A stretch of DNA of 64,000 nucleotides from Brachionus manjavacas (lineage: Eukaryota; Rotifera; Eurotatoria; Ploima; Brachionidae): the NCBI GenBank assembly GCA_019054805.1, contig JAHQIY010000008.1, forward strand, positions 295,501 to 359,500, read 5' to 3'. A model generated the notes under the pieces. It was not told where the DNA came from, did not search any database, and saw only the letters and a list, made by a program, of their open reading frames with translations. A program made the translations under genes and the position numbers. Below are positions 21,451 to 60,000 of the stretch, piece by piece; within the stretch, counting starts at the first letter, position 1, and the number at the start of each line of letters is the position of its first letter.

Positions 21451-22048
21451 ATCGTGATGAGCGCATTATGGAATGGACTTTTGGAAAATCAAACAATCTA
21501 TCATTTAACCATATTTCCTATTTTTTTCTAATTAAGTTAAGTTTTGTTTAGATTTTTAAGTTTAATTTATTTTAAAAAAAAAGCTTTTACATTAGTAAAC
21601 CGAACTTAATACGCGTAGTCCGATAAATGTTAAGAGAATCTTGCCGTATAATGGACTATACTATTCATTTTCTATAGTCACGCAAAGCTTTAACATCTTT
21701 TTAGTTTTTATTTAAGGCGTCGAAAATTACAAGCAATTTATTCTTAATCTTCACAAACAATGAATCAAACAACCGGTCTTTTTTTTAATTTATATTTGTA
21801 AATAAAATAAATATAATTGTAATTATTTTGATTTAATTGTATTTTTGTACAATTAAATTTGTTATTCAAATAAATCGGTGAAGATGAGTTCGACTTAACT
21901 GAAACTGAAGGCTAAATTACTAGATCTGACGACGAAATAGATCTAACAGAATGTTTCAGAGAGCGACATTTTTCATAATTCGGGATCGATACGATTTGGA
22001 AAATGATATTCAAAGGATATATAAGAGAGATTTGAGAAGAGCTAGTTT

Positions 22049-35902: not shown

Positions 35903-36471
35903 TCTAAATTTTCTTGACTGGCAGTTTGCTGACCAATTTTGTTAGATGATTGATCTACTTGAATTGAACATTCAGTTGTTGAACTGTTTGATTCAGACTC
36001 GAAGGTACTGTCGTTTTGATTTTCTAATACAACTAATGGTTTCTTTGATTCATTTTCGGTGAGCTCTTTTTCATTTGGATCAGATTCGGGAAATCTCTTG
36101 ATTTGATTTTTTGTTTGGAAAAAAGCTTCAGTCTCATTCTGATCATTTGAGAGGACATTGACAGGTCTCTGACTTATTGGTAGAAGATCGTTTAAATGGC
36201 TTACCAAACTGTCTTCTAACACTGAAGTTTTGAGGTCTTGAGGACTAATTTCTGACATTACGTCATTGAGATTTGATGGCTGATATCCAGGCGTTTTTGG
36301 CATCAGATTTTCATCATTGTCTTTTAGGTCAGCTTCAATTATTGATTGGGTTTCTTCTTGGTCAATGTAAAGATCATTGTAGTCAATCTTTTTCCTCTCA
36401 AGCGACTTTAGCTTTTCAGCAATGGAGCATTTTTGTGTTAAGTGTCCTTTCTGATGACACTTTTCGCATAG
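35899..36471 (-). pseudogene. LINE ORF1, C-terminal part (copy D)
   Basis: The open frame contains the second CCHC knuckle region, then an acidic/polar tail (MPKTPGYQPSNLNDVMSEIS and onward) ending NLE. The tail is identical to that of the 47290 copy. ORF1 proteins of this kind bind the element's RNA. The first knuckle and the N-terminus are lost by 5' truncation. Its stop overlaps the ORF2 start (AATGA). Confidence 0.85.
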
Positions 36472-37380: not shown

Positions 37381-40300
37381 CTAAAATAATTTAAAAGACG
37401 GTCCTGGTTTAATGACTGTGACCGAAAGTGATTTCTCTTCAAACCAATTCACAACATCGCTTGCAATTGAATTGATTGTATGAACACATAAGTTGCCTCC
37501 AAGACCGGCAGCCGAGACTCTCAGTGCTGCCTTATGACCGAATATTGTTTCAAGCTGATCGGCCCATTCGTCAAAAATAGGCAACGATCTTTCAAAGCCG
37601 CCTGATTTATCGCAAAGCAATTGATTTTCATCCACAATCCATTCTTCCAACAACTCATCTGTTATGTGGTTGTTCATGTTTGATTGCCAAGCAGTTGGTC
37701 CAAAGTCATTCCTAAAGTCAACACATGCTCTGTCGCCATTGTGGGAATATTTTATCAAATCGAACAAATAGCTCATATTTTTGGCATCAAAGTTTGTCAT
37801 TAGCTGAACATATTCATGACATCGTTCAACTTCACTTAAACCAAAAAGCGTCGCTTTTCTCGGATAAATAACTTCTTCATTTGTTCCAATAACAACATTG
37901 ACCTTTTGCGGCAACAACTTCAATACTCTAAAAATTAAATTGTATCTTTTAGACTTGTTTTCATAAATAGTTTCAAGACGTCCACCAGCACACAAATCTC
38001 TTAGCAAAAAATCTTCTCTATCAACCAAGCTTTTCACACTCAAATCATCAATTCCAACTGATCTAATCTTTTCCAAATTGTGAAAACTTTTTTTGATTAA
38101 ATTTAAAGAATAGACAAATACAAAAGAGCCAAATTTTCTCATTATGCCTCTAGCCCAGTTGTTAACAGCGGCTATTTTGTCTTCAGAAAAAGATAATTTT
38201 TTCAAATAGTCCCTTGATTCCGGTGAGTTTAGGCGTGGTATTTTTGAATCTACCATCAAGACAACGATTTTCTCAGGCAAACAAAGTTTATTGATAATTG
38301 TTTCAGGCATGGATGAAACAAAAATTATCTTTTTGTCAACTGAATTCAAAATACTTGTCTTGTCCGCACAGCCAGCTGTTTTACCAAGAAAAAACTCTGC
38401 ATAGTCGGTCTGGCACAGCTGAATGGTTGAAAGATTCAAGTCAAATAGCTGGTTTAATGACAAGACTAGAGCTGAAGTCAGAGCTGACGAAGATGAGCTT
38501 CCGATGCCCGAATTCAGCTTCAGCAATCCGCATGAACTAAAATGAATTCGAAAGCCGGCAATTTTATCCTTTACTCCTTGGAAATTAATGATCATGTAGG
38601 CTAGACTTGCTTTCAAAAAACTAATCCATTCACTTGGATCCCAAATTTTGTCTCCCATTTTTACACTTTTAAAATCGATTTCATTTAATTCAAAAATTGA
38701 TCTTTTGTAAACTAAATCTGAATTGGTTAGGTAAACAAAATGGTCTCTTGTGGCTTGGCAAATGGACAAAATTTCATTTTGACTGTTTGCATTGATTGTC
38801 GGGCCCCCTAGTCCAACAAAATCTGTGTGACTGCCAAAATACCGGTCCCTTCCGTTCACTAGCAAAAAGTTGACTTCTCGATCCAGATCAAAATTATTAA
38901 TTAAAGCATCATCAATAGTTTTTTGTATAAAATTTAGTCTTTCTTCAAAAAATTCACAAGAATAACGTTGATCTAAAAAATTTAGAATAAATCTATTTTT
39001 TTCACTCACAAATATTTTCCAGTCCAAAAGTGTTTGTGGAAAACTTTTGCCACTTTTTGTCCTATTAGCCAAGTGAGTGCAAAAATTTTCATCTATCGAA
39101 GGACACATTACAGACGTGATTTTGTTGTCCTCGAAAATTAGCTGCTCGCCAAAGATCAAAGTGCCTGGTCTGGCATTTACTTCAAGAACATAAGCTGTTA
39201 GCATGCCATCATTTGATTCAATGATCATGTCAATACCAATAATGGCTAAATTTACTTTTTTACCAATTGAGTGCGCAATGCCAAGCAAATAGTTCCATTG
39301 TGCTGAATTAATTGAAATTTTTTTTCCACTTTTTTCATACAAATTGTTGACTACTAGTTCCAATCGTTCACAATAGCCGTCCAAAACCAAGCCGGTTGTT
39401 CCTCTAAGACCAATAATCTTTGAATCCGATTTTGATGTGTAAGAAGCAACAGTTATGTGGTCACAAACTACATTGAATCGGAAAACACAATGATGTTTTT
39501 GTTTGTACAGGACATTTCCTTTGAACTCACTTAAAATTGGATTTTTGATCTGTTCAGACTGTTGCAGAATTTCTTTTATTTGAAAGTGGTCAAAATAATG
39601 GACTTGAGTGGATTCGGTAGAGTTTGAGCTCGGTTGCAGGACAACTCCGTTTTGACAATCAGCTACAAAATTGTCTACTTTATCCTGAGTGGATTCGTTC
39701 AATAAAATAAATTTTGGAATGTGGAAATTTTTTTCTTTCACTTTTCTTATCCAGAGTTTGTCATCTGCTCTAGTTTGACTTTGCTCAAAGGGGTTTATGA
39801 CATCAATACCAACTGATTGATACAAAAGGCTCAGTTTTCTGTGATTTTCCATCTCATTTGTTTGATTTAGTTCCACCAGGAAACAGTGGTTGATGACTAG
39901 GAAAGAGCTAAGGTCCGACTCGACAAATAAATTTGAGTAAAAATCAAAAAGAATTGCTCTTTTGACCAAGTTTGTGCCTGGCAAAAACCATGATGGATGC
40001 AGACCAACAACATTGATTGAATGATCGCCTTTGCCAGCAATAAATGGATAAATTTGGTGAGTAATTAGATTTAGTTTGTCAGAAATGACTGCGAATGTTC
40101 TAGGGGCAAGATTAAAACTTTGTTTACAAGGAGCTATTTGAAGCTGCGGCGCCAATGGTTGAGATAAAATAGAATCGGTCACCAAATCAATTAGGCGATT
40201 TTTGTACACACTATCAGATAACCACTTAGTCACATTGGCTACATCAATTTTTATCACTGGAATAATTTTATTTTTTTCTAATAGAGATTTTTTTTTACAA

Positions 40301-40980
40301 AAATCTACATCGTTTGGGCTAACACAATCCAATAAATTGCTCAATTGATTTTGGTTAAAGGCTAAATTTTTGAAAGCTAACTTTAAAGCTTCTTTGATCC
40401 ACAGTGATGTTTGATTGTGTTCTATTGTAATGATACCATAGTTTTGCCATACAGTGGACAAAGAATCGTACAGATACAGTGCTAGTTCTGATGGAGGATC
40501 AATAATATTTTCCTGTTTTTTGATAATAAATGATTCATTTGAGTAAATTTTTGTTTTTTTGCTCAAAAAATTTTCTCCTGCTTTTAGAAAATTTCCCAAA
40601 ACTATTCGATCAGAAATGCCAATGTTAATGGAATCAGTATTTCCGTGTTGGATGCAGCGAATTTCTTCACGTTTCCAATAGTTTGGCCACAGACCAATGC
40701 CTACATTTGGTTCCAGGAGCCAAAATTTAAATTTTGAAATTTTAGCTTGTTGTTTGTGGCCGGTTGAGTCCATAACAATAAATTCACAATCTTCATCATT
40801 AATTAAATTTACTTGGATATCAATTATCTGACAGTTTGCTATCTCTCTGCCTTCATTGTCAACAAAAATTGCTTCAGGTATCAAGTCTAACATTAAATAT
40901 CGAGGCCACCATGTAGGGCACCCACACGCATCTTTCTCTGGCACGTCAGATCTACGATTTTTGAAGGCCTTTATTTTGTC
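37381..40980 (-). CDS. Giant gene exon 3: ATP-grasp-like domain fused to GHMP (galactokinase-like) kinase
   Basis: It encodes 1199 residues ending KPGPSFKLF. Residue numbers below count from the Val of VPEKDACGC. ATP-grasp-like: NGVVLQPSSNSTE at about 432-444, AIIGIDMIIES (567-577) and the metal/ATP-binding strand VLEVNARPGTLIFGE (586-600, E588 and N590). GHMP kinase: substrate-side motif NGRDRYFGSHTDFVGLGG (697-714), the Gly/Ser-rich ATP loop NSGIGSSSSSALTSAL (811-826), the catalytic-Asp motif KTAGCADKTS (855-864), a galactokinase-like KYSHNGDR (1065-1072) and the C-terminal glycine motif SAAGLGGNLCV (1144-1154). All three kinase motifs are present, so activity is plausible. The substrate cannot be told; galactokinase, arabinokinase and heptose kinase relatives are all possible. 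Confidence 0.82.
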   Translation of the reverse strand, partial: DKIKAFKNRRSDVPEKDACGCPTWWPRYLMLDLIPEAIFVDNEGREIANCQIIDIQVNLINDEDCEFIVMDSTGHKQQAKISKFKFWLLEPNVGIGLWPNYWKREEIRCIQHGNTDSINIGISDRIVLGNFLKAGENFLSKKTKIYSNESFIIKKQENIIDPPSELALYLYDSLSTVWQNYGIITIEHNQTSLWIKEALKLAFKNLAFNQNQLSNLLDCVSPNDVDFCKKKSLLEKNKIIPVIKIDVANVTKWLSDSVYKNRLIDLVTDSILSQPLAPQLQIAPCKQSFNLAPRTFAVISDKLNLITHQIYPFIAGKGDHSINVVGLHPSWFLPGTNLVKRAILFDFYSNLFVESDLSSFLVINHCFLVELNQTNEMENHRKLSLLYQSVGIDVINPFEQSQTRADDKLWIRKVKEKNFHIPKFILLNESTQDKVDNFVADCQNGVVLQPSSNSTESTQVHYFDHFQIKEILQQSEQIKNPILSEFKGNVLYKQKHHCVFRFNVVCDHITVASYTSKSDSKIIGLRGTTGLVLDGYCERLELVVNNLYEKSGKKISINSAQWNYLLGIAHSIGKKVNLAIIGIDMIIESNDGMLTAYVLEVNARPGTLIFGEQLIFEDNKITSVMCPSIDENFCTHLANRTKSGKSFPQTLLDWKIFVSEKNRFILNFLDQRYSCEFFEERLNFIQKTIDDALINNFDLDREVNFLLVNGRDRYFGSHTDFVGLGGPTINANSQNEILSICQATRDHFVYLTNSDLVYKRSIFELNEIDFKSVKMGDKIWDPSEWISFLKASLAYMIINFQGVKDKIAGFRIHFSSCGLLKLNSGIGSSSSSALTSALVLSLNQLFDLNLSTIQLCQTDYAEFFLGKTAGCADKTSILNSVDKKIIFVSSMPETIINKLCLPEKIVVLMVDSKIPRLNSPESRDYLKKLSFSEDKIAAVNNWARGIMRKFGSFVFVYSLNLIKKSFHNLEKIRSVGIDDLSVKSLVDREDFLLRDLCAGGRLETIYENKSKRYNLIFRVLKLLPQKVNVVIGTNEEVIYPRKATLFGLSEVERCHEYVQLMTNFDAKNMSYLFDLIKYSHNGDRACVDFRNDFGPTAWQSNMNNHITDELLEEWIVDENQLLCDKSGGFERSLPIFDEWADQLETIFGHKAALRVSAAGLGGNLCVHTINSIASDVVNWFEEKSLSVTVIKPGPSFKLF

Positions 40981-43900
40981 CTAAAAATAAGCTTTTATGA
41001 ATATTTTTTATTAAGGTTTGCTTGAAAAAATCAATTTAAACGTTTTTTGTTAAATTTAGCCCACGAAATTAATATTATTAATTTCAATATTTTTATGTCT
41101 CTGAATTTAAAGGACGTTAAAGGTGTATCACCGCTAATTTAATCATAATTCCTCTAAATTAAAGAAAAAAGACTAATTCTAATTATTATAATCTATTTAT
41201 TGATATAATAAGATAAACACAAACACATCTAATATAATTTAAAAAAAAACTATTCTTATAAAAAAAAATCTAATTATTTAAAAAAAATTATTATTCAATT
41301 TTAAAATTTTTTCTGATTTTCAAACCCATTGAATGAACTCGAAAAATTATGGGTTTTACCTTTTCCTCTCTAATCTAGTGTCGTCAATTAAATTATCTAT
41401 TAAATGTCCTGATGATTGAGTTTCAGTTCAGTCATATTTTTTTATTTTTTTTTATTAGTTTGCGAATTTTCTAGAAACATGATTATTAACTAAATTTTTT
41501 TAATTTTAATAAAAAGCTTCACTTCTAAATTAATAATTAATTCAAAATTTACTAATAGTTAGTTAAAAGAAGGTGATAATTGAATGCTTTGATAGGTTTT
41601 AAATAATAAATTTTAAAATATGATTAACTTTAAAAAAATTAATTGACTGTGCCAAAGAGCAGAATCAATTTTTTCTAACCTTACTAAACGACCTTACTAA
41701 ACGGCCGACCTAAGCGACCTTTGATTTAAACCAAAATCTGATGATCAGGAGAATAATTGATGAGTTAGTTAAAAAAATATTGCTCAGTAAATAAATTAGA
41801 TAGTGAGTATTTGATGATTATTTTATTTATCTCTTAGGATCAGCCGGCAAGGCCGCTTAGGTCGGCCGGTTCGGAGCCGCAAACAGGCCGGGACGGACGG
41901 CCGCGCTGGCCGTTGTTTGGTCGCGGCTTTTTTGCGTTGCGTTTTTATTAGAACCGCTGTACTTCAGAATTGTTAGAAACAATGCAACAATTTGGTCACA
42001 AGATTCACAGGACTTTAATTATAATTCTATCATTATTTATTATTTATTATCTCATAGGCAAAATTAAATAAAAAAGTTACTAAAAAAATAGAAGAAAGAA
42101 TATATATATATAAAAAAGCATATAAAAGCATTAAGTTAACAGACAAAAGTCAAATTTTTGATTAACTTTTATTTTTAAAAATTAATAGAATTTTTAGACT
42201 TGTATCAAAATTCACAGAACCGATTAAAAGAATATTTTGAAAAAATTCAACCTTTTTGGCAACTTTAATTATATTTTATGATGGGGATATCATTTTATTT
42301 GTAAACCGGGTGACAATTTTTGATAAATGTTTTTTTCCTCATTTAAATTAGATGCCTTAAATTTTTTTAAAAATAATTAAACAAAAGAGGGTACGTAGAA
42401 AAAAAGCTTTTTTTTGATTGTTTGAAAAAAATATGGTAATCTAAAAAAGGGTATTTTTCGTAAAATAACGATAATTATCGTAAAATTCAGTGAAAAAAAA
42501 AATTTCCAAAATTTCTCGAAAAAACCGATTTTCATGAAAAAAATTTTTTTTTGAATTTTTGAAAAAGGAAAACAAAAAAAATTTTTTTGACAAAAATTCA
42601 CGTAAATTTCGGTAATTTCTTGTAAAAAAAGGTAAAAAATGGTAAAAATTCAACAGAAAAGGAAAAATGGATTTTTTATTATTTCATTCAATTTTTTTCC
42701 TAAACAAATTAAAATATATACAAATTATTTACAAAATAAATTTTATTTTCTAGCTTTTTTTGCTTTTAAGCTGTTAGCTGTCTTGTCCCAAGCTTCTTTG
42801 AATGTTGATCCCTTTGGAATAAATTTTACAAGCCCAGCTTTTTAAAAAAATTATGTCTAACTTTTGATTTCATTTAAAGCATATTATTTTACTTTTGATA
42901 TTAAGCATTTCAAAAAACTTTGACAGTTGAAAAATGTAAGAAATATATAAATCATCTTAAATATGTAAAAAATATTAAAAAATTTTATTATTTTAATTTT
43001 TTAATAAAACATTTCTAGGTTGTTGAGATTGAAAGTGAAAGAAATGGTGACTGGTCAGATCATTAAATTCTGATTGTATATCTTTTTTTTATAGAGCTTT
43101 TTATAAATGATTTTTGATAATTTTTGTATATAAGAAAATAATTTAACGTTTTCGTACTTAATATTTTCAAATACTGATTTGGGAAAACAAATAATTGACA
43201 AATAAATATTAATTTTCATAATTTGTTTAGAAAAAAAATTGAATGAAATAATAAAAAATCCATTTTTCCTTTTCTGTTGAATTTTTACAATTTTTTACAA
43301 GAAATTACCGAAATTTACGTCAATTTTTGTCAAAAAAATTTTTTTTGTTTTCCTTTTTTCAAAAATTCAAAAAAAAAATTTTTTTCATGAAAATCGGTTT
43401 TTTTCGAGAAATTTTGGAATTTTTTTTTTCACAGAATTTTACAGTAATTATCGGTATTTTACGAAAAATACTCTTTTTTAGATTACCATATTTTACGGTA
43501 AATATGGTAAAATATCGTGAATTTACCATAATTAAAATCAATTTTAAGGAAAACCAATTTCAAGCTAATATTAACAAATTCGTCGTTTTCCAGTAGCTTA
43601 TTTAGGGCTTACTGGTTACTACAATAGCTCAATTTAATAAAATATATGCATCCGTATGTCCGTTACTTAACATATAGTTTGTAATAATCATTGAACTCAA
43701 AAATGGTTTTTGCTACTTTGCTGAAATTGGTCCAAGAGGCCATTGATTTGGCAGTTTTTTGAACTCTTGTATTTAAAATTTTTGCTTAGAAATTTTTTTT
43801 ATTTGTGGGTGGCAGTTTTTTGTTGGTGAGGGGTAGGTGGACCCAAAAAAATTCAATTTTAGAGTGATTCATGTCATTTAACATAATATTGAGAAAAATG

Positions 43901-46900
43901 ATGAAACAACTTGTAAAATGAACTTACTGCTAGTAAACTTATGTCTTCGTTCCAGTATGTAGGTCCGAATTTAGCCGTAATTGACATTACTTCTTGACTT
44001 GTTTGTATTAGATCACTCAAAAAAGTATTTCTAAATTTGGAATGAATCATTTCAGGAGAGAGTAATTCGAGTGTTCCTTGTCGACCAACATTAGTCGCTG
44101 TTTGCAGTGATGACAGAGATAATAAATGCGAAGTTTGCCAATTATTCCAATTGTACAAATCGTCAAGATCTGGCACACTCGATGATAAAATTACGCGCAA
44201 AGTTCCGTAAATAAAATCCTTAGGATATTTGTCCACATTAACACACACACCGAACTCATTTATTTGTCTATCAATGAATTTTCTAATGGCATACTTAGAC
44301 ATCCATGTCAGTGGAGTGGATAAAATTGCCTTTTGAATGGTCACATTTTGGCTCTTGGACACCTCGTATACAAACCTGGCTGCTTGGTTAAGAGCTGTAC
44401 CATTGAACACATCAAACCTGCACAAATTCCTAGCCCCGGACTCTGCCGAGCCTTTGCATATTATGATGGGATATGCGGCAACAAATGGTCTAAGCCTAGC
44501 GCTTATCTTTTCAATAACTCGATTTTCATGTTCATTCAGAGTCTCCGAATGAAACCAGTCTATCTGAGGCGGTAACAAATCATGCTCAGAATAGATCAGA
44601 GGATACAGCGATTTGTTATAGGTCAAGTCAAATAAGAATGGTGACTTGTCCGTAGTTGGATAGCCTGCTTTTGAAAGTTGAATTTCAAGAGGATGATGGT
44701 GGTGCGCAATGCAAGATCCGACCAAAACTGGTTGCTTAAAAATGGCCGCACATCGGATCCCCTTGATGGAAAAGCGTCCAAAACTTTCATCTCTCTTTAA
44801 GCACTCCTCAATGTCATTATCACTAAAACCGTGATGGCTTAAGCATTGAACATACTGATGCTTGGTCATGTAAAAATAGCCATCTGATATAAACAAAAAA
44901 GAGTCGGACACAAAACCAGTTCTTGTGATGAAAATGTTATCATTTAATTGGGCTGATTCCATGATGGCGCGAGAGTAGTGGGTTCGGCCGATTGGCGACA
45001 AAATGGCAAAATTAATTTTCTCATTCACATTCAAAAATTGCTGGTCAAATTCACCAAAAATGACAGGAAACTCAAAGCCATCATTGCGCATGAAACTAAT
45101 GTCGCGCAATTGGTTGTAGGCGCGCCACAATGACTCATAGTGACCAATTGTACCATTATTACCAATGGCTTGGATCACAACAGAGTTGTCTTTGACCAAA
45201 CCAAGCAAAACATTTCTGTCACTTTCGCCAGGCACTTTGACTCTTAAATCCGAATGATTTACAATTAAGTTTAGTAGATACTGGTATAAAATTTTGTGAG
45301 TGTTCCATGAAATTTCATACAGCTGTTCAGAGCATTCTTGTTTCAAGACGCCTAAATAGTCATAGTATTGAACGAATGAGGAGCCGCGCTTTTGATCCAA
45401 AAACCAAGGGTTGTACTCGTAAAAATGATCATCAATTGTTTTTGAAAAAAATTGTGCCAAATTGCGCCAGATGTCGCTTTTGAATTGGCACATTTTTAAG
45501 CTCAAATACTCATTTGTTTTTTCCAAAGCAATTAGATAGTAAAGTAATTCACAGCAATTGAAAACGCTTTGTTTATTATCTGTTAGTTCAAATAGTTTGG
45601 AAATGTGACCATGACTTTCATAGGTGCCACAAAATCTGTCAAATACACTCAAGTTTAACTGGCCATTGGTGAACAGCTCGTTCAGATCGTCGAGCATGTT
45701 TTCACTTATCAGACTTTGATGAAATAGGTTTTTAATAACAATCTTTATGTATTCAATTGTAAGGCGAGATATTTGACCAAATGATTTGTTAACAAAATCC
45801 TGGTCATATGCACCATTTGCCGGTGTATTGGACAAATTTAGCATTAGATTGCGAGCTTTATTGAACATTTGCTCGGCATTCAAATTCTCACACATTTGAT
45901 TGAATCCATCGAGGCGCTGTTTTAAGGCGTTTTGTTGTCTATTTTCCAAAGACAGCTGAGCTCGTCTGGCTATTGCTCTCACTTGGCATTCTTCACTTGC
46001 TTTCACTGAGAACATCTCGCGCTTTTTCTCTGATAAACTTATTCTGTCAGCTTCCAATTGTGGAACAATTAAATCTGAAACTTTTTTCTCCTCCTGTAAA
46101 TTCTCCTCCAGCTGAGGATTAATTATTTGAAAGCATTTCCTAATGATGTCCAAAGCCTCAGATTGATTTTGTCTAGTTGAACCATTAATTAAAAAAATTC
46201 CTCCGATCGAAAGCCAATGGTGTCTTGTGAAAATTTTTTCCACTTGACTTGTAGTGACCAATTCTTCTACTGACTGTAAAATTATTTTGTCTCTTTGCTT
46301 AAATCTTTTGGCCATCAAAAGCCTCTGTGCCAATTGCTGTAAATTCAAAATTTCACATGATAAATTAGTTAAGTGTTTTTTTAAAATTGATTTATAGCTA
46401 GCGATTGCCAATTTCTGGTCTTGACTCGATTTCACAACTTTTAAAGCCGCACTTAAATGAAATTTAAAATTTCAATACGAATGATTGTAGAATAAAAATA
46501 AAATTTCTCTGCAAAAAGGTATGCAATGGGATACGAGTAAAAAAGATTAAGCTTTATTTCCTAGTTTTTATTTATATTCACTATTAATCTAGCACTAAGA
46601 ACTGCACTATAAATTATACTGACTTATTCTTTATTTTTAGATAATATATTCACTCTTATTTACTTCAATATAATATTTTAAAACGAATTAGTTATTTATC
46701 CTTGTCTGCGATAACTCATAGAAGTACAATTAATAGATTTAATTAATTTACAGTCGAGTCTTGTTATAACGATGCTGATTATTATTTATTTATTTGTATA
46801 TCTGTACCGAGCTAGAGCTCCTTCAGATTAAAAAAAAAAAAAAAAAAAAGAATAAATAAAAATTAAAATAAAGTTAAATAAAATAAAATAAAAATAAAAA

Positions 46901-49900
46901 GTAAGAAAAAAATAGAGTTAAAATAATATAACTTAAAAAGTAGATAAATATTAAAATTAAAATTAGATAAATTTTGATAGAGAGTAACAGAATACATATT
47001 TTAATTATTTGACGATGCTGATTAATACGATATTCGCTTTATAACGATATTTTTTTTCATAATTTACATTCCCCAATATAATTACATGTTAAATTTCTTT
47101 GTTAATACGATGTTTCTTTAATACGCTATCTAATTAATACGATAGGTTTATTCAGAAAAAAACGTACAAATCAGTGCTAATTGATCGTTTTTAATACGAT
47201 ATTGATCTTTTAAACAAAAAAATAGAAGACCAATGAAATCCAGTTATAATTAAATATAATTAAATATTAATGTTAATTTAATTGCTTGTGTGTATATAAA
47301 GGTAATTTTATATACATATGGAATTGATGGACTCAATATTGAACACATTACCGAAGAAAAATATAAAGATAGACCCGAGAGGAAAAATGGTGTCAGAAGA
47401 GTAAGAATATCATTTCCAAAAGAAGTTGAGAACATTATTGGAAGCTTGTCAGGCCCTACAATAATGTATGGTTTAAAGTGTCTTGTGTCAATTGTTGGAC
47501 AAAAGCAGAAATGCTATTTTTGTGATGAAGAAGGGCACAACATAGCGAAATGCCCTGTCAAAGAAAAACTATGCGAAAAGTGTCATCAGAAAGGACACTT
47601 AACACAAAAATGCTCCATTGCTGAAAAGCTAAAGTCGCTTGAGAGGAAAAAGATTGACTACAATGATCTTTACATTGACCAAGAAGAAACCCAATCAATA
47701 ATTGAAGCTGACCTAAAAGACAATGATGAAAATCTGATGCCAAAAACGCCTGGATATCAGCCATCAAATCTCAATGACGTAATGTCAGAAATTAGTCCTC
47801 AAGACCTCAAAACTTCAGTGTTAGAAGACAGTTTGGTAAGCCATTTAAACGATCTTCTACCAATAAGTCAGAGACCTGTCAATGTCCTCTCAAATGATCA
47901 GAATGAGACTGAAGCTTTTTTCCAAACAAAAAATCAAATCAAGAGATTTCCCGAATCTGATCCAAATGAAAAAGAGCTCACCGAAAATGAATCAAAGAAA
48001 CCATTAGTTGTATTAGAAAATCAAAACGACAGTACCTTCGAGTCTGAATCAAACAGTTCAACAACTGAATGTTCAATTCAAGTAGATCAATCATCTAACA
48101 AAATTGGTCAGCAAACTGCCAGTCAAGAAAATTTAGAATGAACAAGAAGCTAAATAAATCAACTTTAAGAACAAAACCTCTTAATAAAACAAGGTTAGTA
48201 ATTACACACTGGAATTGTCTTCATTTACCTAGTAGGGTTCATCTCTTAGACAATTTTTTAGCTCAAAAATGTCCCGACATTGTTTTGCTCAATGAATTAA
48301 AGATAGATTTGAGTGAGGCAAATATTTATCTTGATTTTCAAAATTATCAGTTCTTAACAAAACCACGCAACAAGTACGGAGGAGGAGTAGCTATTTTAAT
48401 TAAAGAAGGAATCGAATTTATACAAGATTTTTCTTACGAGGAATTCAATTCCGAACTCCTTTGTATAAAAATGAACTTAGGAAAGAATAATGAACTGTTT
48501 GTATTTAGTCTTTATAATCCACCTAATGTGCTTCTGAACTTTGAGTTTTTTAAAACAGTAAATAAAACATGTAGAAACTACATTTTAGGTGGTGATCTAA
48601 ACGCTAGAACAAAGCAAATAGGCTGCGTAGGGGAAAATGAAAACGGGATAATATTAGAAAGAATAATCAACGAGCTAGACTTTTCAGTAATCAATGATAA
48701 GCATCCTACTTTCAATATTTTTAATAAGAATTACTTTGAAATTCTTGACCTTTTTTTAGTTTCATCTTCATTGATTGACAAAATTACCGACTTTAGTGTC
48801 TTAAATAGTCAAGACATGCTAGTGACCATTTCCCAATCGAAGCATCGATTTCTATGGGCTATCAATTAGAAAATAAATCAGCAGCTAAAAGGCTTAACTA
48901 TAAGAAAGCAAACTGGCAATTATTCCGCGAGATTTTAAATTCTCAAATAGTGAATGTCACTGAAAGTTCCCTCACAATAGATCAACTAAATGATGAAATA
49001 ACAGAAAAAATTATTTCTGCTTCACATAAAAGCATTCCATATCTTTCTCAGAAAATCTACAAAAAGAGTCTTCCGCCAAACATTGTTAATTTGATAAAAG
49101 AACGTAGGAAAGTAAGAAGAAATTACCAGAAAACTCGCTGTCAAAAGCTCAAGCAAAAATTTAATCAACTTACATCTGAGTTAAAGGCCTCTTTAAAAAA
49201 ATTCTGGAATCAAAATTGGTTTGATTTTATTGAGAAGATGGGAAAAAACCCACTGACAAGTAGACCTTTTTGGAAAAAAATAAATAAATTTAGAACAAAA
49301 AAGGATCAAATTTAATTCCTAAATTGATTTTAAATGAAAGGGAATTCAAAACTAATGAAGAAAAGGGAAAATGCTTTGGAGAACTCTTATCGTCAATATT
49401 TAGTCCTAATTCTGATTTAATCGATACTGAGAAAGATATCGAAATTCTAAATTCTAACTCTGTTTTCTTTAGGAATTATAACCAGTCTAATTTTAATGAT
49501 CCAATATGCTTAAATGAATTAATTATGGCTTTAAAGAGATTAAAAAATGAAGCGGCATCAGGACCTGACCAAATTCATAATTTAATGTTAAAAAACTTAC
49601 CTAGAAATTCATTAATAGAAATCATAGAACTTTTTAATTTAACTCTTCGAGAAGGTAGAGTCCCGAAAGCGTGGAAAACATCTTACATTACTATGATTCA
49701 AAAAAAGGCCTCTAGTTTACACGATCCTTTAAATTATAGACCAATTAGTATAACGAGTTGTTTAGGAAAGCTACTGGAACGCATAGTATATTCAAGATTA
49801 TACAATTTTTTAGAGCAAAATTCACTCCTTATCCAGGAGCAATCTGGATTTAGGAAACACCGGCGAACAGCAGATAATCTTTTCTTCTTAATTCAAAAAA

Positions 49901-51040
49901 TTGTGGAATCATTTAATAGAAAAAAGAGTTTGCGGCCTTTTTTTTGATATTTCTAAAGCCTTTGATAGGGTTTGGCATGAAGGTTTACTTTTTAAATTGA
50001 TTAAAATAAATCCACCTCATTACTTGACTAACTGGATAAAATCCTTTTTAGACTCTAAGACATTTAAGGTAAATGTGAATGACCATTTGAGCGAAGAATA
50101 TCAAATAACTGCAGGTGTTCCTCAAGGCTCAGTAATTAGTCCTCTTTTATTTAGTATATACATTAATGACATCCCTAAAAGAAACAAAACAAATAATGAA
50201 TACTCTCTGCTTTTTGCAGATGATCTAGTTACATTCTTCATTTATAAAAAAATAGGGAACCTAGAAAATAAGATCAATAAATACCTCAACGAATTAGAAC
50301 AATGGCTTATTAAGTGGAAAATGAAGATATCGGTTGAAAAGTCGTGTTCATTAGTCTTTTCTAGGTACAAAAAAGAGAGTGATAATCTTAACTTAAAAAT
50401 TTATGGAAACAGAATAGAGAGACAAAAAGAAATCAAGTTTCTTGGTATTAAATTTGATTCTAAATTAAACTTTAATATACTAGTAGATGAAATTAAAGAG
50501 CGCTGCAATAAAAGGCTAAATATTATTAAGATATTGTCAAACAAAAAATGGGGTCTTAATCAGAACACACTAGGAAATCTATATAAATCTTTAGTCGGAT
50601 CAATTTTAGACTATTCTTTTCCTTGCTTGAATTCATTTTCAGAAAATAATATCAAAAAACTACAAGCAATTCAGAATACAGCAGTCAGATCTATTCTTAA
50701 GTTAAAATATGAATCTCCCTCCAACATCGTACATCATGAGGCTTTTAATAAACTAAAATTACTAACAGTCTCGAATCGGCTTTTTGAATTGAGTGAGAGA
50801 TATGTTGGGACAGGACTGAGTCATTCTATTCCATTGGTTGTAAGACTGGTGAAGGAATACAAAGAAGGTTTCGAATCAAGATATATTGACTACCCAACTC
50901 CATTGTGTAATTGCTACCTTACTATTTCTTCTTTTTTTCCTGAAACTTGAACCAATTAAACATGAGCCACATGTAACAATCTTTTCCAATTTTATATATT
51001 CTTAATTTTCATTTATTTAGCTTATTTACTTTTTTTTTAA

Positions 51041-51071
<31 letters not shown>

Positions 51072-54000
51072 TCTTATTTTATTAACTTTAATTTTATTTT
51101 TATTTTATTTTATTTCATTTTTATTTTATTTTTTTAATTTTTAACTTATTCTGAAGGAGCTCTAGCTCGGTACAGAAAACAAATAAATAAATAAAAATAA
51201 TAACATATGTAAACAAAAAATGTCCACTCAAATTAAAAGAAAACCTTTGTCATTAGAAGAAAAACTTGAAATTTTGAATGATTTAAAAAAAAATAATCTC
51301 ACTGTCACAGAACTTGTGAAAAAATATAATAGACCTCAGAGTACTGTTTCTTCTATTCTTAACATAGATAAACTACGATTGTATTTTGCCCAAAAGAACG
51401 AAGACTGTTCTTTATTCATTGTCTAAAATGGATCAATTTTGTAGCGTCGATCAGTCTTTTCAAAGTAAAATTGATAAATATTTTTCCTTTTAATATATTT
51501 ATTATTTTTAAATAAACAATAATTCCTTTAAAAAAATTTATTTTCAATATTTTTCTTCCCATCCTTTAACATGCAAATTTGATTAATACGATATTCGTTT
51601 ATACGATGTCCTTTTTTTCCGCCCAAACACATCGTATTATCCAGACTCGACTGTAGGAAAAGTATAATTAAGGGTTGTGCCTAAAACGTGGAAAGCGGAA
51701 TGCGGAAATTTTTAAAAATTTCCATTATTCTCAAACATTGTGAGAGATATGACGCTATTATTAAAAAAATTTTCCTAAAAAAGACTACGTTTTACTAAAA
51801 AAGAAGAAAAATGAATTGAAACTTTTTTTTAATATTATTCATTTTGCCTTTTTTTGATATACTTTTTTATTTTGTTGTGAGTGTTTTACCGAAATAAATA
51901 AATCAAATCTACTAAAAATGGTTTTTAAATTAAAATTTGCTCTCATCGTCCTTGAGGTTTTTAAAATTTATTTTAAGATTATGATTTTTCAAATAAAAAA
52001 AAAGAAAAAAACCGTTAATTTTTTTTATTTAATTTTTTTTTTTGGTTTTGTTTTTCTTTTACTGAACTAAAGTACAGATTTTTACTGAATTTGTAGATAA
52101 AAATTATTTAGGCTCCTAAAATAAAAGAATGCAAGAAAAAAAAAATATTTAAAAGATCTATAAAAGATCAGGCTCAATATATTCATACTAGGTGCTCGCG
52201 ACTCTACGAAATTTCTAAGAATTCGGACTTTTCTCTTATTCTCATAACACCATAGGGATCAATTGTTCATTTTCATTCATGAACAATGATTTATTTTATT
52301 CAATTTATATTATAATTTCATTTTAATTTCTTACAGAGTTATTTAAAAGACACAACTCTCAAGTCAAGTCCAAGTCCAGACTTTAAAATATTTTTTTTTT
52401 CAAAAGTTTGAGTAAAAACTTTCATATTTTATTTTTTATCAAGATGAATATAATAACTAGCAATAATTATTTAAGTATTTTAAAATAATAAATTTTCTTA
52501 ATCTTGATGACTCGACGTTCCGAGATCCCAAAGTCAATTTTTTCTCCGGTTTTAAAAATTATTCAAATAATTGTTCCTTTTTTTCCATGAAGAGTAATTG
52601 TTCAGGAATTTTTCACGTTCAATAAATGTGAAGGGACAAATGAAATTTCTTCCGTGCCAGGAAATGATAATTTTGCGGTCCAAGGTGGCTATTATGGAAG
52701 CCAAGCGAGTGTTGGACTTTTAAAAAAAAATATATAAAAGTCGTTGCCTTGGACTCTTGAAAATTAAAAATTAAAAAAGTGTTCGGACCTGGACTTTAAT
52801 TTGGGACTTTTAAACAACTCTGATTTCTTTACTTTATACCCCTCTCAGTTCCTTTTTATTTTTTTTTCTTATTATTTGTACAATGAATTTTATAACACAG
52901 TTAACAATAATGTTACTATTTGACTCTTTAATCTTATCAGTCCTCTTATTTCTGTAATTTTCGTTTTTTAGCGCAATGTTACCATAGGCGATCTCCATGT
53001 AGACCGCCTCCGCAAGCTTGCTTATTATTATTATTGAGACTTCATTTTATATAAAATTTTTTAACAATTTTTTTATTTTTGAAATTTACCTGTATTAGTT
53101 ATAGAAAAAAAAATCAATTAAATAATTAATTATTTTAAAACAAGGATTAATCTATCAAAAAAATTTGCTAATTTTTCTTTATTGTAAACACTAAACAAAG
53201 ACATAATTTCATTATCTTTTTTAATTTCTGATTTTTCACGTGGATAAACTATGCCTCTATTAATTTTATCCATTGTATCAATTGTAAAATGTTTTACCTT
53301 AAGTCTATTTTTTCCTAAACATTTTAAATTTTATTACAAGAATAAAATATTTTAATAATAAATATTTAAATCTAAAGATTCTTACTTCCAAATGTCAATC
53401 GCTCGGTTTTCTTGTCTAATTACTTCGGTTCTCAGATCAGTTCCTAGTAGAGGTAAATATTGATTATAACCAGTTCCAAAAGCTTTGTAAACAGCTTGAC
53501 GATTATTTCGTTTTGACCAATCTAGTTGTAATTTTCCATTTAGTTGCAGACCACGAGCAGCAGCATACCATAGCATAACATCACGTTCATACCAGCACCT
53601 GTGTCTTCCTTGAGACACAAAATCAAGAGCACAAAGTGCTGAATTAGGCCGACCAACCAACATTAGGTCACGAAGATGAGCTGGATTGAGGTTCAAAATT
53701 TCGGGATGTGTAATTGAGAATACAACGGCGTCCTGTCCTTGTAAATCATTTAAAAAATCAGTTCCTGGTCCGCGTAAACGCAACACCAGCGGATGAATAG
53801 ACCCTCCTATTAAATCTTTAATTTTTTGTATTTCTTTCACTGCCAATTTGTTCAAAGGTGTCCATTCCTCAGGAAATTTTCGCCTTAGAATACAATTAGC
53901 TTTAATTTGATCTAAAGACATTTGGCCTAAATTTTCAAGGACATGTCTAGCTCTGTTTGCCTCATCACCCAGTAAAGTCATTGTTTCGGCACTGAATCCC

Positions 54001-57000
54001 AACAAATCTTCACTATCAACGCCTGGAACAACCGTTATCGTTATATCTCCGACAGTGCTATGACACGGAAAAGCTTTTTTAAAGCGTTCAACCAGATCAT
54101 CACTCAAATGATTATACTCAAATTTTTTCATTAAATAATTAACTGCTTCTACATCTCTGGGATCTGATGAATCTGGTCTGAATCCGACCCAGGACAAACG
54201 AGCAATTATTTGACCATCAATGTCTAATGAATCAGCTACTTTATCATAGTGACCGGACATGATTTGAAAAGCTCGCATGGTCCATGAATAGCGAACGTCC
54301 GGCGGTGGTGGTTCATCATCGTCACCTTTATACACGCCAAACATTTGAATTCTTAGAAATTAAAACATTATTTTTTTTAGCTTTACATTTGGGTGAATAT
54401 TTTTTACAAATATTAGTAGTAGAAGAAGCCTTGCAATGAGATGTGTGAATAGCTTGAATTAAATGTAAAAAAAAATAAAATAAATAATTCAAACAATCAT
54501 TTTTTTACTTCAAATTTAGATATTTAGTTTTGTATTTTAGTAGGTAAGAGAAATTGATTAATTTAAATTAAAATTATTTTCATTTTCAATAAATAGAACA
54601 ATTTTTCATTTCAAATGATTTAATTTTCTTTTCAAAATTCTTGTCCTTTTTTTTCTTGTCGAATTTCAAAATTCAACATATTTTAAATCAGACTTAATTA
54701 CTTAAAAAATCAAATTTATTTACAGTGCTGCTACATGGTTCTGAGGTAAATTAACGTACTTTTTTTAATAGAATTTTCAAAAAAAGATTTGAAAAAAAAA
54801 TATTTTCACTTTTCAAATCATCAAAAATAAATTTATCAAAATATACGTAAAATTACGTAAAAAATTATTTTTTGAGGTAAAAAAAAAAGTAAAAAAAAGA
54901 AAAAAACTGTAAATTTTTTTTATTCAATTAATTTCATTTCAATTTTTAAATTTTGTTGTTTTTTGTTTCTTTATTCTAGGTCCAGACCAGTCTCTATCTT
55001 ATTTGATTACTATTTCGATTACTTTTGGTTTTTAGAATTTATTTAGAGATATTCTTGATAAAAACAATGGCTGGGTTAAAATCCTTAGCAAATCACCTAA
55101 AAGCGAGAATGAAGTAGAAAAGGCGATTTTTGAATTCAAGAAATTTCTCACTCGATCGAGAAGAAAATAAAAAAGGAATTAAAGAATGAAGGATTTAAAT
55201 TTTAAATACCAGGTAATCGAAATAGTAATCAAACAAGATGGAGACTGGTCTGGACATTAAAAAATTACCAAAATAAACGTAAAATTACGTAAATCTACCT
55301 CAAAACCATGTATCGTAGCAACACTGCATATTATATTCTGTTTTAATTTATTAAAATTAAAAGCTTAAAATCTTTTTTTCATTACCATTTTTCTTTTTTG
55401 TCCTCCAATGCGTTATCAAAGTGAAAACATATCAAGGGAGAAAAATAAGATCATAAAACCGAATAGACTAAAAAAGACGAATCTAAATTTCATAAAACTC
55501 CATACTCTTTCTCTCTCTCTTTCTTTATATGTAAATGTTAATTTTAGTTTCCGTTTAAAGTTTGAGATTAAAGATTTAAAAGAGAAAATCTTCTTTCAAT
55601 TTTATTTAATAGTGTCAGGCTATTAAAGTATTCTTATTTTAATTTATTAAAAATAGAAAAATGGTAAAATAATTTTAATTTGAGAAAGGGGAATTTTGAA
55701 CTTTTCAATTGATCAATTCAAAGGGTTTATGTTTAGATAATAAAAGATTTCTTTGTAAAATGCTTTACATGTTATGTAGATAGAATAATTCAAAAAAAAT
55801 ATTTTCTCAATCTATTGATTAAAAAGATTTTTAAATTTAAATGAATTATCTAATTTGTTGTAAAGTTTATTTTGAAATTTTTTATTTAAAAAGTATTTTT
55901 ATCTAGCTTTTAAAATTAAGTTTAAAAATAAAAATTAAATATTAATGTCCAAATCAGTTATATATTGAAAAGATCCTTCTTTCCTCCCAATTTTTTTAAA
56001 TAAAAAAAAATTCAAAATAAAATTCACAACAAATGAGATAATACATTTAAATTTAAAAATCAATTTTATCAATTGATTGAGAAAATAATTTTTTTTAAAT
56101 ATTTTATTTTTTAATTCTACATGACATGTAAAGTATGATACATTAAAATTTTTTAAAACAAATTTAAAGATTAATTTAAAGATGCCGAGAATGACAAAAT
56201 GAATATTGGAAAAAAAACTTTTTTTTTTAAAAGCACGATTTTTTTTAATTCTTTATTATTCAAGGTTAATCAGCATGCTAGTGCCCTTTTTTTCCAAGAC
56301 TGATTAACACTTCATTTATCTAATTATTTAAATATTAAAATCCAAATTTTACACAAAGAAAAAAAAATTAAATTAAATTTTAACTGAATATTTTCATTTG
56401 AATTAAAAAATTTTGTACATCAAATCAAATTAAATAATTTACACGCTCTATTGTAAGTTAAATTTAAATTATTAAATACAGATATCTTGAGGTGATTAAA
56501 AGTTAAATTTTTTTTTTCAATAAGAAAATTATTAATTAATTTTGAAAAAACAAGATCATTCGTTTTCAAATTAAGATAAATATTAGAAAATTGTCAAATT
56601 TAAATTGCAGATTTGTTGCTTTATTTAAAAACATTGAAAATAATTATATTAAAAAAAAAATTAAAATTCTAGCAAAGAAAAGTTTATGATAAAATTCCAT
56701 ATTTTTTAAATGTAAAAAAGAGGATAGCCGCCTGTACTCTTGCAAATGATGAAATTACGCATTTAAAATATTTTGAGCGTTTTTTAAATTATGAAATTAG
56801 ATCGTAAATTTTTCTTTGCTTAAAATCTACATAAAATTTAATCAATATTTAAAAAAGTTATTAAACTAAATTTTAATAAATCAAATTAATGTTGTTGAAA
56901 ATTGAAAGCCTGAATAAAGAAATCTCCAACATTGATCTCTTGATTACAAAGCAATATATTAAAATTCAAGCATATTTTGCTGAATTACTAGACCTAAACA

Positions 57001-60000
57001 AAAAAAACTTTTTCAACTTGAAATTTTGCTTATTCTCTGTTCCAAATGTCACAATTACTGTGAGAAAGCTATTTTAAATTAAATTATTCTATTTCAAATA
57101 ATGAGTAGAATGGGTTTAGTTTAATTTTTAAGGATCAGAACTATAAAATATGGTCTACAATGGAGGTCTTTGAGACGAGCATTTGACCAAATTTCATGAA
57201 TTGGCAATTCCTTTTTTTTTAGTAAAATTTGTCAAATACGGCTGTAATTTAAAATTATCTTGATAAAATTTAAAAAAAAAAATTCTAATAAATAATGTGT
57301 TAATTTTCTTTGAAAGCCAAAATTTACTACATTACCTTAACGATTCTTCAGGTGCCACAGCAACATTTGCATTTAGTTCTCTGGACTTTCTGGCCGATTG
57401 CAAAATATCTCTAGTCATTGTGAACACAGTCGATCTGTTAACTTGCTCTCCACCGAGAGTTATTTTATGATCCGACCAGTTCGACCACAAAACACTGTGC
57501 AAATCACGCTCACTATTTAACATTGGATTAGGTATGCCTGTGTCTCCAATTATTTGAATTAATTTACTCAAATTAAACACTATTTTGGTTTGGGAACATT
57601 TCAAAAAATTACAAAAATAATCTTTAATTATAAAAGAATGCTCATCAAACATTTGACTCAAATAATCCTCATTTAAAAAATATTGTAAAGCCCACAATTC
57701 CCACTCTTGAATAGAATCAAAGCCAGACTTGGCATCATAAATTTTCACCATCAATTGAATTAAATTTTGATGCAAAACTTTAGGTATGCCCAGCTGGCCC
57801 AGTTTTCTTGTGTCCTGAAGAGCACCTACAAAAAGTTTAAAGAGTAAATCCTTGGGAATGCAATAGCCGGCCGTCGGTCCACTATTGTAGCCCTCGGCCT
57901 CTTTTAACGAGCCGAAAAAAAGTCCACCCCTTTGATTGAACTGATAGGACAAGTCCTCGATGTCACCGATGCCCAGTCTTTCGACAAAAAAAGCCTGCAC
58001 ATTGCGGCACGATCTAATCAATGCGGTCCATTGGTTTTCCGAGACCTTAAGGTTTTCTGCCTCTCGTATATTCCTCACTACAGGACAGTAATTAATCAGC
58101 TCGTAACAGTCCAATGCGTGCTTGGCCGCCAACGGATCTGTTACTCCCAAAAATTGCGACCAAATTTCCACACTTTTTCTCTCATCTTTTCCCAGATTGA
58201 CTCTGGACGGCGCATAGATCGAATGATATCGCTTTTTCAAACCTTTGGATTGCAAGCCATCACTAAGACCATTCGTATAATTAAACAATGGACTGTTAAG
58301 CTCACTGCTGAGGCCATTGCTTGAAATGGCCACTCGTCTACATGTCGTTTTTAGTAAGGCTGTGTGCTCGCGGACAAAATTTGTGCGCCTTTCTCTCAAG
58401 CATAAACTTGGATACTTTTCGACCACAAACTTGAAACATTTTGCTCTGACCAACCACTTGATTTCTGCATTCAACTCTTTAGAGTATACTGGGTCATTTG
58501 GTAAATTTTGAACGCCACAAAAATCGGGCTCGTTCCTATTACGCTCAAAAACCAAGTCCATAGCTTCACTTTTCACCAAGTCCAAATCTAAGCACATTTC
58601 TCTAAGCCAATAGTCCTCAATCGCATCAATTAGATAATTGCCCAAATCCATAAAGACAAAACTGGTCTGAAGTGAATTTTGCAGATTGTAAATTTCGGCC
58701 AGTATTGCCAAGACAGACACTTGGTCTTGAACAGGCAAATTTTCGGCCAGCACCTTCAAAACTGAGCTTTGATACGAATTGCCCAAAGTTACATGGTGAT
58801 TTACTTTGGGCTCGTAATCAAACTCTTTAATTACTCTATTAGATAAAATGAAAAGATTTTTTTTTATTTGTAAATCTATTTGATCACATTTGTGCTGGAG
58901 CTTGTGATGTTTAATCATATTTCTCATTGCCATTTCTTCTTCTAGGACAATGGTTATGAAGCCTTCTATTAAGCCCGGAGCTTCGGTGGTTAGCAAATGA
59001 AATGCGGGCAAGTCTCGCTGTTTTTCAAAGCACACATGTCTAAATCTGTCTTCGATCTCTAAATTTTCGGATTCCTCAATCAATTTGGAATTGATTAAAC
59101 CATGTTGTAGCAAATAAATTCCAAGAGATTCTTTACGAAGAATAAATTTATGTTTGGACCAAAAATCTTCGACTATTTGTTCACATTGTTGGATATTTTT
59201 GTTATAAATCATTTCTAATAATGAAGCCAATTTGGCTATTTTGTTTTCAATTGATTCTTTGGACTCTATTTTGTTTAAAAGCAGATAGTCTAAAGTGACA
59301 AGTTCAGCTATTTGTTCATCATTGACTTCCTTTTGAATTTCATCAAATATTTTGGCAAATTTCGGTTCTAGTTTGACTAGAATGGACCTTGCCAAACTCA
59401 CATGCTCTGAATCCATAGTTTTTTCAATATTCTCGGCCCAGTAGTCAGCAATCTGTCTAACAGTGAGCTCGAGGCCTTCTTGGTCAACTTCAAAAACAGT
59501 CTCTGGTTTATTGTCAACTAGAACTATTCTCTCATAGATAAACAATGGTACTGCTTCGATTAGATCAGTAGCTTCTGATATCCAATCGTAACAAGGACTC
59601 ATGTACAGATGGTCGCCTCCTAAAAGAACAAGCTTTTGCAGAGATTCCTCCTGTTCTGGCTTGGTTTCTAGTTCGTTTAGTTTAAATCGATCTGAGCCGG
59701 TGTAAGATGGTCTTTGCAGTAGAACACTAAACGCTGCGCGTTTTGAACTTGTAGAAGATGAATTTAGCTCATGAGCTAATTTTTCTAGCTTGTTTATTTC
59801 ATGGGTTATTTTGGCACTAAAGCTATCCAATTCAATAAAATCAAAACTTTTCTCATCTTCTTCATCTAAATTTAAATTTTTCAACTCTATAGAACAACTT
59901 GTCGCTTTTTCAACCAAATATTTGTATTTACAATGCATTTTGTCTTTGACTCGTCTTTCAAATATGTCCAAGCATTCCCGTAAATTTGTTATACCACTAG

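What the first reader, a model, noticed from the sequence alone, without database searches (positions are those of the whole stretch)
37381..46451. Unusual fusion of ATP-grasp-like modules with a galactokinase-type GHMP kinase
The last exon carries all three GHMP kinase motifs (GRDRYFGSHTDFVG, GIGSSSSSA, SAAGLGGN) after an ATP-grasp-like VLEVNARPG strand. The previous exon has a second ATP-grasp-like patch (IIICKGSAESGARN). I know of no described animal enzyme with this order, so it may be a new sugar-activating or ligating megaenzyme, perhaps of horizontal origin.
Basis: partly seen in the sequence, partly recalled or inferred. Interest (0 to 1): 0.85.

Follow-up and report, generated by a model that had tools for sequence, protein, structure and literature searches.

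The report
Giant bacterial enzyme in animal genome
An animal genome carries a four-exon gene for a giant, probably sugar-handling protein of about 3,600 amino acids whose near-full-length relatives, as far as could be searched, are giant proteins of Omnitrophota, a group of uncultured bacteria, so the animal most likely took the whole multi-part machine from such a bacterium.

Summary
But the gene is larger. Two more exons upstream carry a nucleotide-sugar-dehydrogenase-like module; four exons join in phase at GT-AG introns into 3,605 aa. Family libraries name only fragments. A genome scan found colinear relatives (36-40% identity over about residues 130-2550, 24-29% beyond) in giant ORFs of Candidatus Omnitrophota MAGs; 12 genomes of that phylum carry relatives. 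An exon-B profile gave only two weak partial hits in 1,158 genomes of three other phyla. In trees the animal gene groups with five copies from one Omnitrophota order at 100%, apart from other copies. Best explanation: horizontal transfer from Omnitrophota into the animal, with introns gained. Active-site residues are kept. Amino-sugar enzymes (GlmS, GlmM, GlmU-like) in or beside two of the bacterial ORFs suggest amino-sugar nucleotide chemistry; the reaction itself is inferred. Not testable here: other animals (no eukaryote collection), expression, activity.

The parts
57336..61063 (-). Exon A (1,242 codons, ATG at 61063): N-terminal region without known relatives outside the bacterial family, then the central part of a nucleotide-sugar-dehydrogenase-like module with AENLKVSEN and GYCIPKD
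   Evidence: bacterial relatives
53386..54351 (-). Exon B (322 codons, phase 2 at both ends): C-terminal part of the dehydrogenase-like module (YK..D..DVR.S); 46-60% identical to four close Omnitrophota copies
43928..46451 (-). Exon C (841 codons): helical stretch, then the first ATP-grasp module (Ddl/DcsG-like), with KGSAESGARN
37381..40980 (-). Exon D (1,199 codons and TAG stop): end of the first ATP-grasp module, second ATP-grasp module, GHMP kinase
39061..40143 (-). Second ATP-grasp module (exon D residues about 280-640; RimK / cyanophycin-synthetase-like)
37384..38913 (-). Galactokinase-type GHMP kinase module (exon D residues about 690-1199)
54352..57335 (-). Intron A-B, GT...AG, 2,984 bases, 21% GC
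46452..53385 (-). Intron B-C, GT...AG, 6,934 bases, holds a LINE-like element (47260-50950, +; named by eye from its frames)
40981..43927 (-). Intron C-D, GT...AG, 2,947 bases, 24% GC

Best explanation
The animal nuclear genome holds one copy of a four-exon gene for a 3,605-aa protein acquired by horizontal transfer from a bacterium of the phylum Candidatus Omnitrophota, where the same module order lies inside giant ORFs. Shown by computation: open, in-phase gene model; colinearity with the bacterial ORFs; grouping with copies of one Omnitrophota order; conserved active-site residues. Strongly suggested: direction bacterium to animal, with introns gained and no bacterial-type hydrophobic leader. 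Inferred: it works as an assembly line on amino-sugar nucleotides. The dehydrogenase-like module (Cys, Lys, Asn and UDP-binding Lys and Arg kept) acts on C6 of an NDP-hexosamine. The two ATP-grasp modules activate a carboxylate as acyl phosphate and join it to an amine or amino acid. The GHMP module phosphorylates a sugar with ATP, most likely at C1 as galactokinases do. Likely product: an amide-linked (amino-acylated) hexosaminuronic acid nucleotide or a precursor of one. Confidence about 0.9 in the origin, 0.35 in the reaction.
For: Colinear BLAST over residues 123-3598 of 3605 with bacterial giant ORFs. Exon B was revealed by a 325-aa gap against a bacterial ORF and then proved 46-60% identical to four copies. 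Splice phases and GT-AG ends fit at all three junctions. Relatives in 10 of 384 genomes of the phylum by protein, 11 of 384 of the class by profile, 5 of 11 of the nearest order; 12 different genomes. Animal plus five copies of that order at 100%. Host is an animal: 7 Wnt matches on 3 contigs, 0 of 14 prokaryote controls (that Wnt is animal-specific is recalled). Dehydrogenase profile E 4.9e-9 to 4r16. GHMP and ATP-grasp hits. Structures. Residues. GlmU-like module inside the G002 ORF, GlmM-like ORF beside it, GlmS-like ORF beside that of G431.
Against: No NAD-binding GxGxxG in the animal's dehydrogenase region, and none at a shared place in the bacterial rows, so it may not be a canonical NAD enzyme. 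In the 4r16 match only the first segment is significant on its own (i-E 1.9e-5; the other two 44 and 270). The galactokinase model matches 7 of 11 members of the family only. One partial copy, G332, comes from a genome listed in the same order yet falls outside the animal's group. The AU test does not reject the animal as sister of the five (p 0.30), and an unrooted tree alone does not prove direction. The exon D model is only fair (mean pLDDT 61.9; 450 of 1,199 residues under 50). No sequence profile hit below E 0.3 in the PDB for the exon C region. No expression or activity data.
Confidence: 0.78

Rival explanations
1. The transfer went the other way, or both sides got the gene from a third lineage not sampled here.
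For: Direction rests on rooting by the more distant Omnitrophota copies; the AU test keeps a tree with the animal outside the five close copies (p 0.30). No eukaryote collection could be searched.
Against: Diversity is far larger among the bacteria (identity to the animal about 18% to 60% over segments A-D). The animal groups with five copies of one order against the other copies at 100%. Two bacterial copies sit beside GlmM-like or GlmS-like giant ORFs.
Confidence: 0.1
2. Assembly contamination: a bacterial stretch mis-joined to animal DNA.
For: Only that the relatives are bacterial.
Against: Three GT-AG introns, one holding a LINE-like element whose second copy in the window is 98.8% identical over 3,386 bases. 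Exon GC 35-40% against 53-65% for loci of the five close bacterial copies. Protein only about 36-40% identical to the closest bacterial copies.
Confidence: 0.02
3. A relic or scaffold: the frame is kept but the protein is no longer an enzyme.
For: No recognisable NAD motif; activity of the fused modules in the animal is untested.
Against: 3,605 codons with no internal stop. K, N and C of the dehydrogenase-like site kept in 12 of 12 sequences; ATP-grasp K408, R501, N503, D584 and N602 in 11 of 11.
Confidence: 0.2

Closest known systems
Giant ORFs of Candidatus Omnitrophota (PMC10066038; four passages seen)
   Same: Phylum and size class; the relatives found here are such ORFs
   Different: The passages report few annotated domains and suggest adhesion, predation or parasitism; this module order is not mentioned in them
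Galactokinase / GHMP kinases (1pie, 2a2d, 9ulx)
   Same: Fold and motifs
   Different: Far below the galactokinase family cut-off (27.8 against 443 bits); GSHTD in place of the GEHTD recalled for galactokinases; fused behind ATP-grasp
UDP-ManNAcA / UDP-glucose-type dehydrogenases (4r16, 3g79, 3vtf; TIGR03026)
   Same: Active-site Cys/Lys/Asn, UDP-binding Lys/Arg (roles recalled), segments in the same order
   Different: No recognisable NAD-binding GxGxxG half; part of a giant protein
ATP-grasp ligases: Ddl, DcsG (exon C) and RimK/MptN/cyanophycin synthetase (exon D)
   Same: Fold (exon C), Mg ligands D/E/N (exon D; role recalled)
   Different: 8-13% identity to the ATP-grasp structures listed; two modules in tandem with a GHMP kinase
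Horizontally acquired genes of animals (compendium PMC13342648; passages seen)
   Same: Bacterial gene in an animal genome
   Different: 'Omnitroph-' does not occur in its main text (its tables were not seen); I recall no transfer into an animal of a 3,600-aa multi-module protein

Membership tests
Omnitrophota giant-ORF family found here | Colinear similarity over the whole module order | tested here: met
Omnitrophota giant-ORF family found here | N-terminal hydrophobic leader | tested here: not met
   crude hydropathy peak in the first 110 residues: 1.32-2.41 in 12 of 12 bacterial frames, 1.13 in the animal; start codons not verified
Omnitrophota giant-ORF family found here | GLEE tetrapeptides (only in 5 of 12 bacterial ORFs, so not defining) | tested here: not met
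   0 in the animal (0.08 expected by chance); 7, 9, 3, 2 and 1 in five ORFs, 0 in seven
NDP-sugar dehydrogenase | Catalytic Cys, Lys, Asn (and Asp) | tested here: met
   12 of 12 each; Asp 10 of 12 (Glu in 2)
NDP-sugar dehydrogenase | C-terminal UDP-binding Lys and Arg (YK...D.R.S) | tested here: met
   12 of 12
NDP-sugar dehydrogenase | NAD-binding GxGxxG | tested here: not met
   none in the animal's exons A and B; scattered pattern hits in some bacterial rows, at no shared NAD-site position
ATP-grasp superfamily, exon C | ATP-grasp fold | tested here: met
   Foldseek on the G001 equivalent, best E 6.1e-5, 4 hits at E <= 0.001
ATP-grasp superfamily, exon D | Mg-binding acidic residues and Asn | tested here: met
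   D584 11/11, E600 10/11 (one Asp), N602 11/11
ATP-grasp superfamily, exon D | ATP-grasp fold by structure search | tested here: inconclusive
   model residues 280-640 mostly well predicted, but all 50 rows listed (of 584) are galactokinase-type
GHMP kinase | Motifs 1-3 and fold | tested here: met
Galactokinase (equivalog) | Score above the NCBIfam cut-off | tested here: not met
   27.8 bits against 443
Horizontal transfer into an animal nucleus | Spliceosomal introns in an animal contig | tested here: met
   splicing itself not observed
Horizontal transfer into an animal nucleus | Absence from other eukaryotes outside the recipient's clade | not testable with these tools
   no eukaryote collection

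The most novel reading that the evidence does not exclude
In Omnitrophota these ORFs are exported polyproteins: an amino-sugar nucleotide pathway (GlmS, GlmM, GlmU, dehydrogenase, ATP-grasp ligases, kinase, PIG-L) is made as giant chains, cut at GLEE linkers by a neighbouring subtilase, and acts outside the cell or in a eukaryotic partner. An animal captured one chain whole, dropped the leader and the linkers, and now runs it as a single cytosolic megaenzyme that makes an amino-acylated uronic-acid nucleotide unknown in animals.
Probability: 0.18. Interest if true: 0.95.

Novelty: new variant of a known kind. Interest (0 to 1): 0.86.

Why it matters
Bacterial genes in animals are known, mostly as single enzymes (recalled). 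Here a protein of about 3,600 aa with four recognisable enzyme-like modules appears to have moved whole from an uncultured bacterial phylum for which host-dependent life has been proposed (PMC10066038). That points to close contact between Omnitrophota and animals, and it would make the function of an otherwise opaque class of giant bacterial proteins testable in an animal.

Tried and rejected
Single-protein scans of viral contigs and genome contigs with exon D confirmed no relative. Plasmids by tblastn: none for exons D, C, B. PHROGs best E 0.056 and PADLOC 0 families for four window frames. Viral contigs with designed or real alignments: none confirmed. I first took exon B for a separate ORF or viral insert because it begins near an ATG; rejected when the bacterial ORFs showed it inside the module. 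Paralogues in the host: none for exons C and D; exons A and B were not searched in the host.

Beyond Omnitrophota (exon B profile A3 only; phyla named from the titles of the loci used as centres): Planctomycetota 1 of 392 (165 of 323 positions, E 3e-5), Verrucomicrobiota 1 of 387 (84 positions, E 1.3e-4, one stop inside), Patescibacteria 0 of 379, 20 mixed genomes 0 of 20. I take the two weak hits for ordinary dehydrogenases (inference). None of these four sets held a known positive, so absence is not proved.

Literature, listings only except where said: 13 of 13 rows seen; 15 of 15; 20 of 48; 15 of 251; 1 of 1; 0 papers; 10 of 100. No row reports this gene or an Omnitrophota-to-animal transfer; subscription papers and preprints are not held.

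Rows G332 and G189 (partial) were dropped for the second tree; the first held all 13. G431 was not in the segment identities. The species of the host was not identified.

Odds changed after checking: best explanation 0.80 to 0.78 and novel case 0.20 to 0.18, because G332 falls outside the group, GLEE is absent in seven bacterial ORFs, and two of the three dehydrogenase segments are not significant alone.
Full report
Observation. Family libraries recognise little. Pfam gives only GHMP_kinases_N in exon D (24.9 bits, cut-off 22.3). NCBIfam gives weak galactokinase and RimK matches. Nothing convincing was found for exon C (best E 0.011). Upstream, an ORF of 1,260 codons gave a weak nucleotide-sugar dehydrogenase match, E 3e-4, that takes in GYCIPKD.

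Gene model. In-phase splice sites join exon A (61063-57336), exon B (54351-53386), exon C (46451-43928) and exon D (40980-37381) into 3,605 codons without an internal stop; all three introns are GT...AG. The start ATG is my choice; an earlier exon is not excluded. Exons C and D are single-copy in the 114-Mb genome. The host is an animal: seven Wnt matches on three contigs, none in 14 prokaryote controls. Its species was not determined.

Relatives. A scan of genome contigs (84,980 species) with a designed pattern alignment gave 271 candidate stretches and 32 confirmed loci. Two, L012 and L013, both titled Candidatus Omnitrophota and from groundwater, match the dehydrogenase-like segment at 66% identity; the other 30 match the second ATP-grasp segment at 25-43%. 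L012 and L013 encode colinear relatives of the protein, and a 325-aa stretch of the L013 frame between exons A and C turned out to be exon B. The whole frames are 5,634 and 6,168 codons. Further searches found relatives in 10 of 384 genomes of the phylum by protein and in 11 of 384 of the class by profile A3: 12 different genomes. In the order of G061 it is 5 of 11; a sixth genome of that list, G332, has a partial copy on a contig that ends before exon B. Ten of the twelve frames span 2,850-6,168 codons (G242's is followed by a second frame, with a masked stretch at the join); G189 and G332 are short pieces, 1,960 and 1,118 codons. Identity by segment to G001, G002, G061 and G242: exon A from residue 200 35-41%, exon B 46-60%, exon C 39-42%, exon D 27-32%; to the distant copies about 18-29%. 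In 1,158 genomes of three other phyla only two weak partial matches to the exon B profile were seen.

Phylogeny. With 13 sequences and 2,212 columns the animal gene groups with G001, G002, G061, G431 and G242, against G332 and six others, at 100%. Without G332 and G189 the split against the five remaining distant copies has 100/100 support. Inside the group the animal falls between G242 and the other four with weak support (58.7/71), and a tree with the animal as sister of all five is not rejected (AU p 0.30). So membership in this bacterial family and nearness to five copies of one order are shown; the exact branching is open. That G332, listed in the same order, falls outside could mean nesting within the order or a paralogue. 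Direction rests on the bacterial outgroups, the larger bacterial diversity and the gene context.

Modules. A profile of exon A's end plus exon B finds UDP-ManNAcA dehydrogenase 4r16 at E 4.9e-9, then 3g79 (1.9e-7) and 3vtf (5.6e-5); in 4r16 three segments lie in order, but only the first is significant alone. Lys, Asn and Cys of the site are kept in 12 of 12, Asp in 10 of 12, the UDP-binding Lys and Arg in 12 of 12 (roles recalled). No GxGxxG was recognised in the animal's exons A-B, nor at a shared place in the bacterial rows. Exon C with the start of exon D, modelled on the bacterial copy G001 with 12 rows, has mean pLDDT 80.3 and pTM 0.68; its first 36 of 50 listed Foldseek rows are ATP-grasp enzymes (DcsG, VanA, Ddl, peptide ligase, glutathione synthetase and others), 4 with E <= 0.001. 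A sequence profile of that region found nothing below E 0.3 in the PDB. Exon D's profile finds 9ulx, named AbGHMP (1.5e-12), galactokinase 1pie (2.3e-9), cyanophycin synthase 7wac (5.8e-5) and DcsG (0.015). Its model has mean pLDDT 61.9, with most of residues 280-640 at about 60-93 and long poor stretches elsewhere; the 50 Foldseek rows listed are all galactokinase-type, so the fold of the second ATP-grasp module rests on sequence. The galactokinase model matches 7 of 11 family members. Among the distant members G027 and G461 carry other GHMP-like loops (GLGTSG, GFSSSSS), while G279 and G093 show none by this pattern. The region before the dehydrogenase part matches only coiled or helical chains weakly (best E 0.0041).

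Context in the bacteria. Only pieces of G001, G002 and G431 were scanned. In G002 the same ORF carries a GlmU-like uridyltransferase between the second ATP-grasp and the GHMP modules (E 1.6e-21) and further on a PIG-L-like stretch (E 1.9e-4, below cut-off). The ORF before it has GlmM-like domains (E 1.2e-15) and the one after it a subtilase (E 6e-41). In G431 the ORF before is GlmS-like (E 3.8e-38). The first 1,500 residues of the G001 ORF hold WD40 repeats and no sugar enzyme was named there. By a crude hydropathy measure all 12 bacterial frames have a stronger peak near the start than the animal protein. GLEE tetrapeptides exceed expectation in five of 12 (7 against 0.29, 9 against 0.44, 3 against 0.13, 2 against 0.16, 1 against 0.04) and are absent in the other seven and in the animal, where 0.08 would be expected. 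PMC10066038 (passages seen) calls the giant ORFs of this phylum poorly understood and suggests symbiotic, adhesive or predatory roles.

Reading. Shown by computation: one animal gene model of four in-phase exons, homologous along most of its length to Omnitrophota giant ORFs, with active-site residues kept. Strongly suggested: horizontal transfer into the animal. Inferred: amino-sugar nucleotide chemistry with carboxylate activation; order of reactions, substrate and product are guesses from module families and neighbours. The paper searches showed no earlier report in the rows seen, within an open-access library only.

Noticed in passing
window about 33096-36471 (-) and 47569-50950 (+): Two LINE-like elements (named by eye from their frames) in opposite orientation, 98.8% identical over 3,386 bases, flank exons C and D; one sits inside intron B-C, so it arrived recently.
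   Followed up: partly
window about 42428-42711 and 43219-43494: Intron C-D holds an inverted repeat, 92% identical over 287 bases, perhaps a small non-autonomous element.
   Followed up: partly
Omnitrophota loci L058-L061, L062, L068, L085: Five of 12 giant frames carry GLEE tetrapeptides above expectation, and a subtilase lies next to one of them: possible polyprotein cleavage sites.
   Followed up: partly
L060:4833-9332: The first 1,500 residues of the G001 giant ORF hold WD40 repeats, ahead of the shared module order.
   Followed up: no
L085:3-9932 and L059:3545-9874: GlmS-like and GlmM-like enzymes are themselves embedded in giant frames of 3,310 and 2,110 codons beside the family.
   Followed up: partly
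window 22046-23989: Frames that look by eye like a retroelement fragment with a reverse-transcriptase stretch (frames listed; not searched).
   Followed up: no
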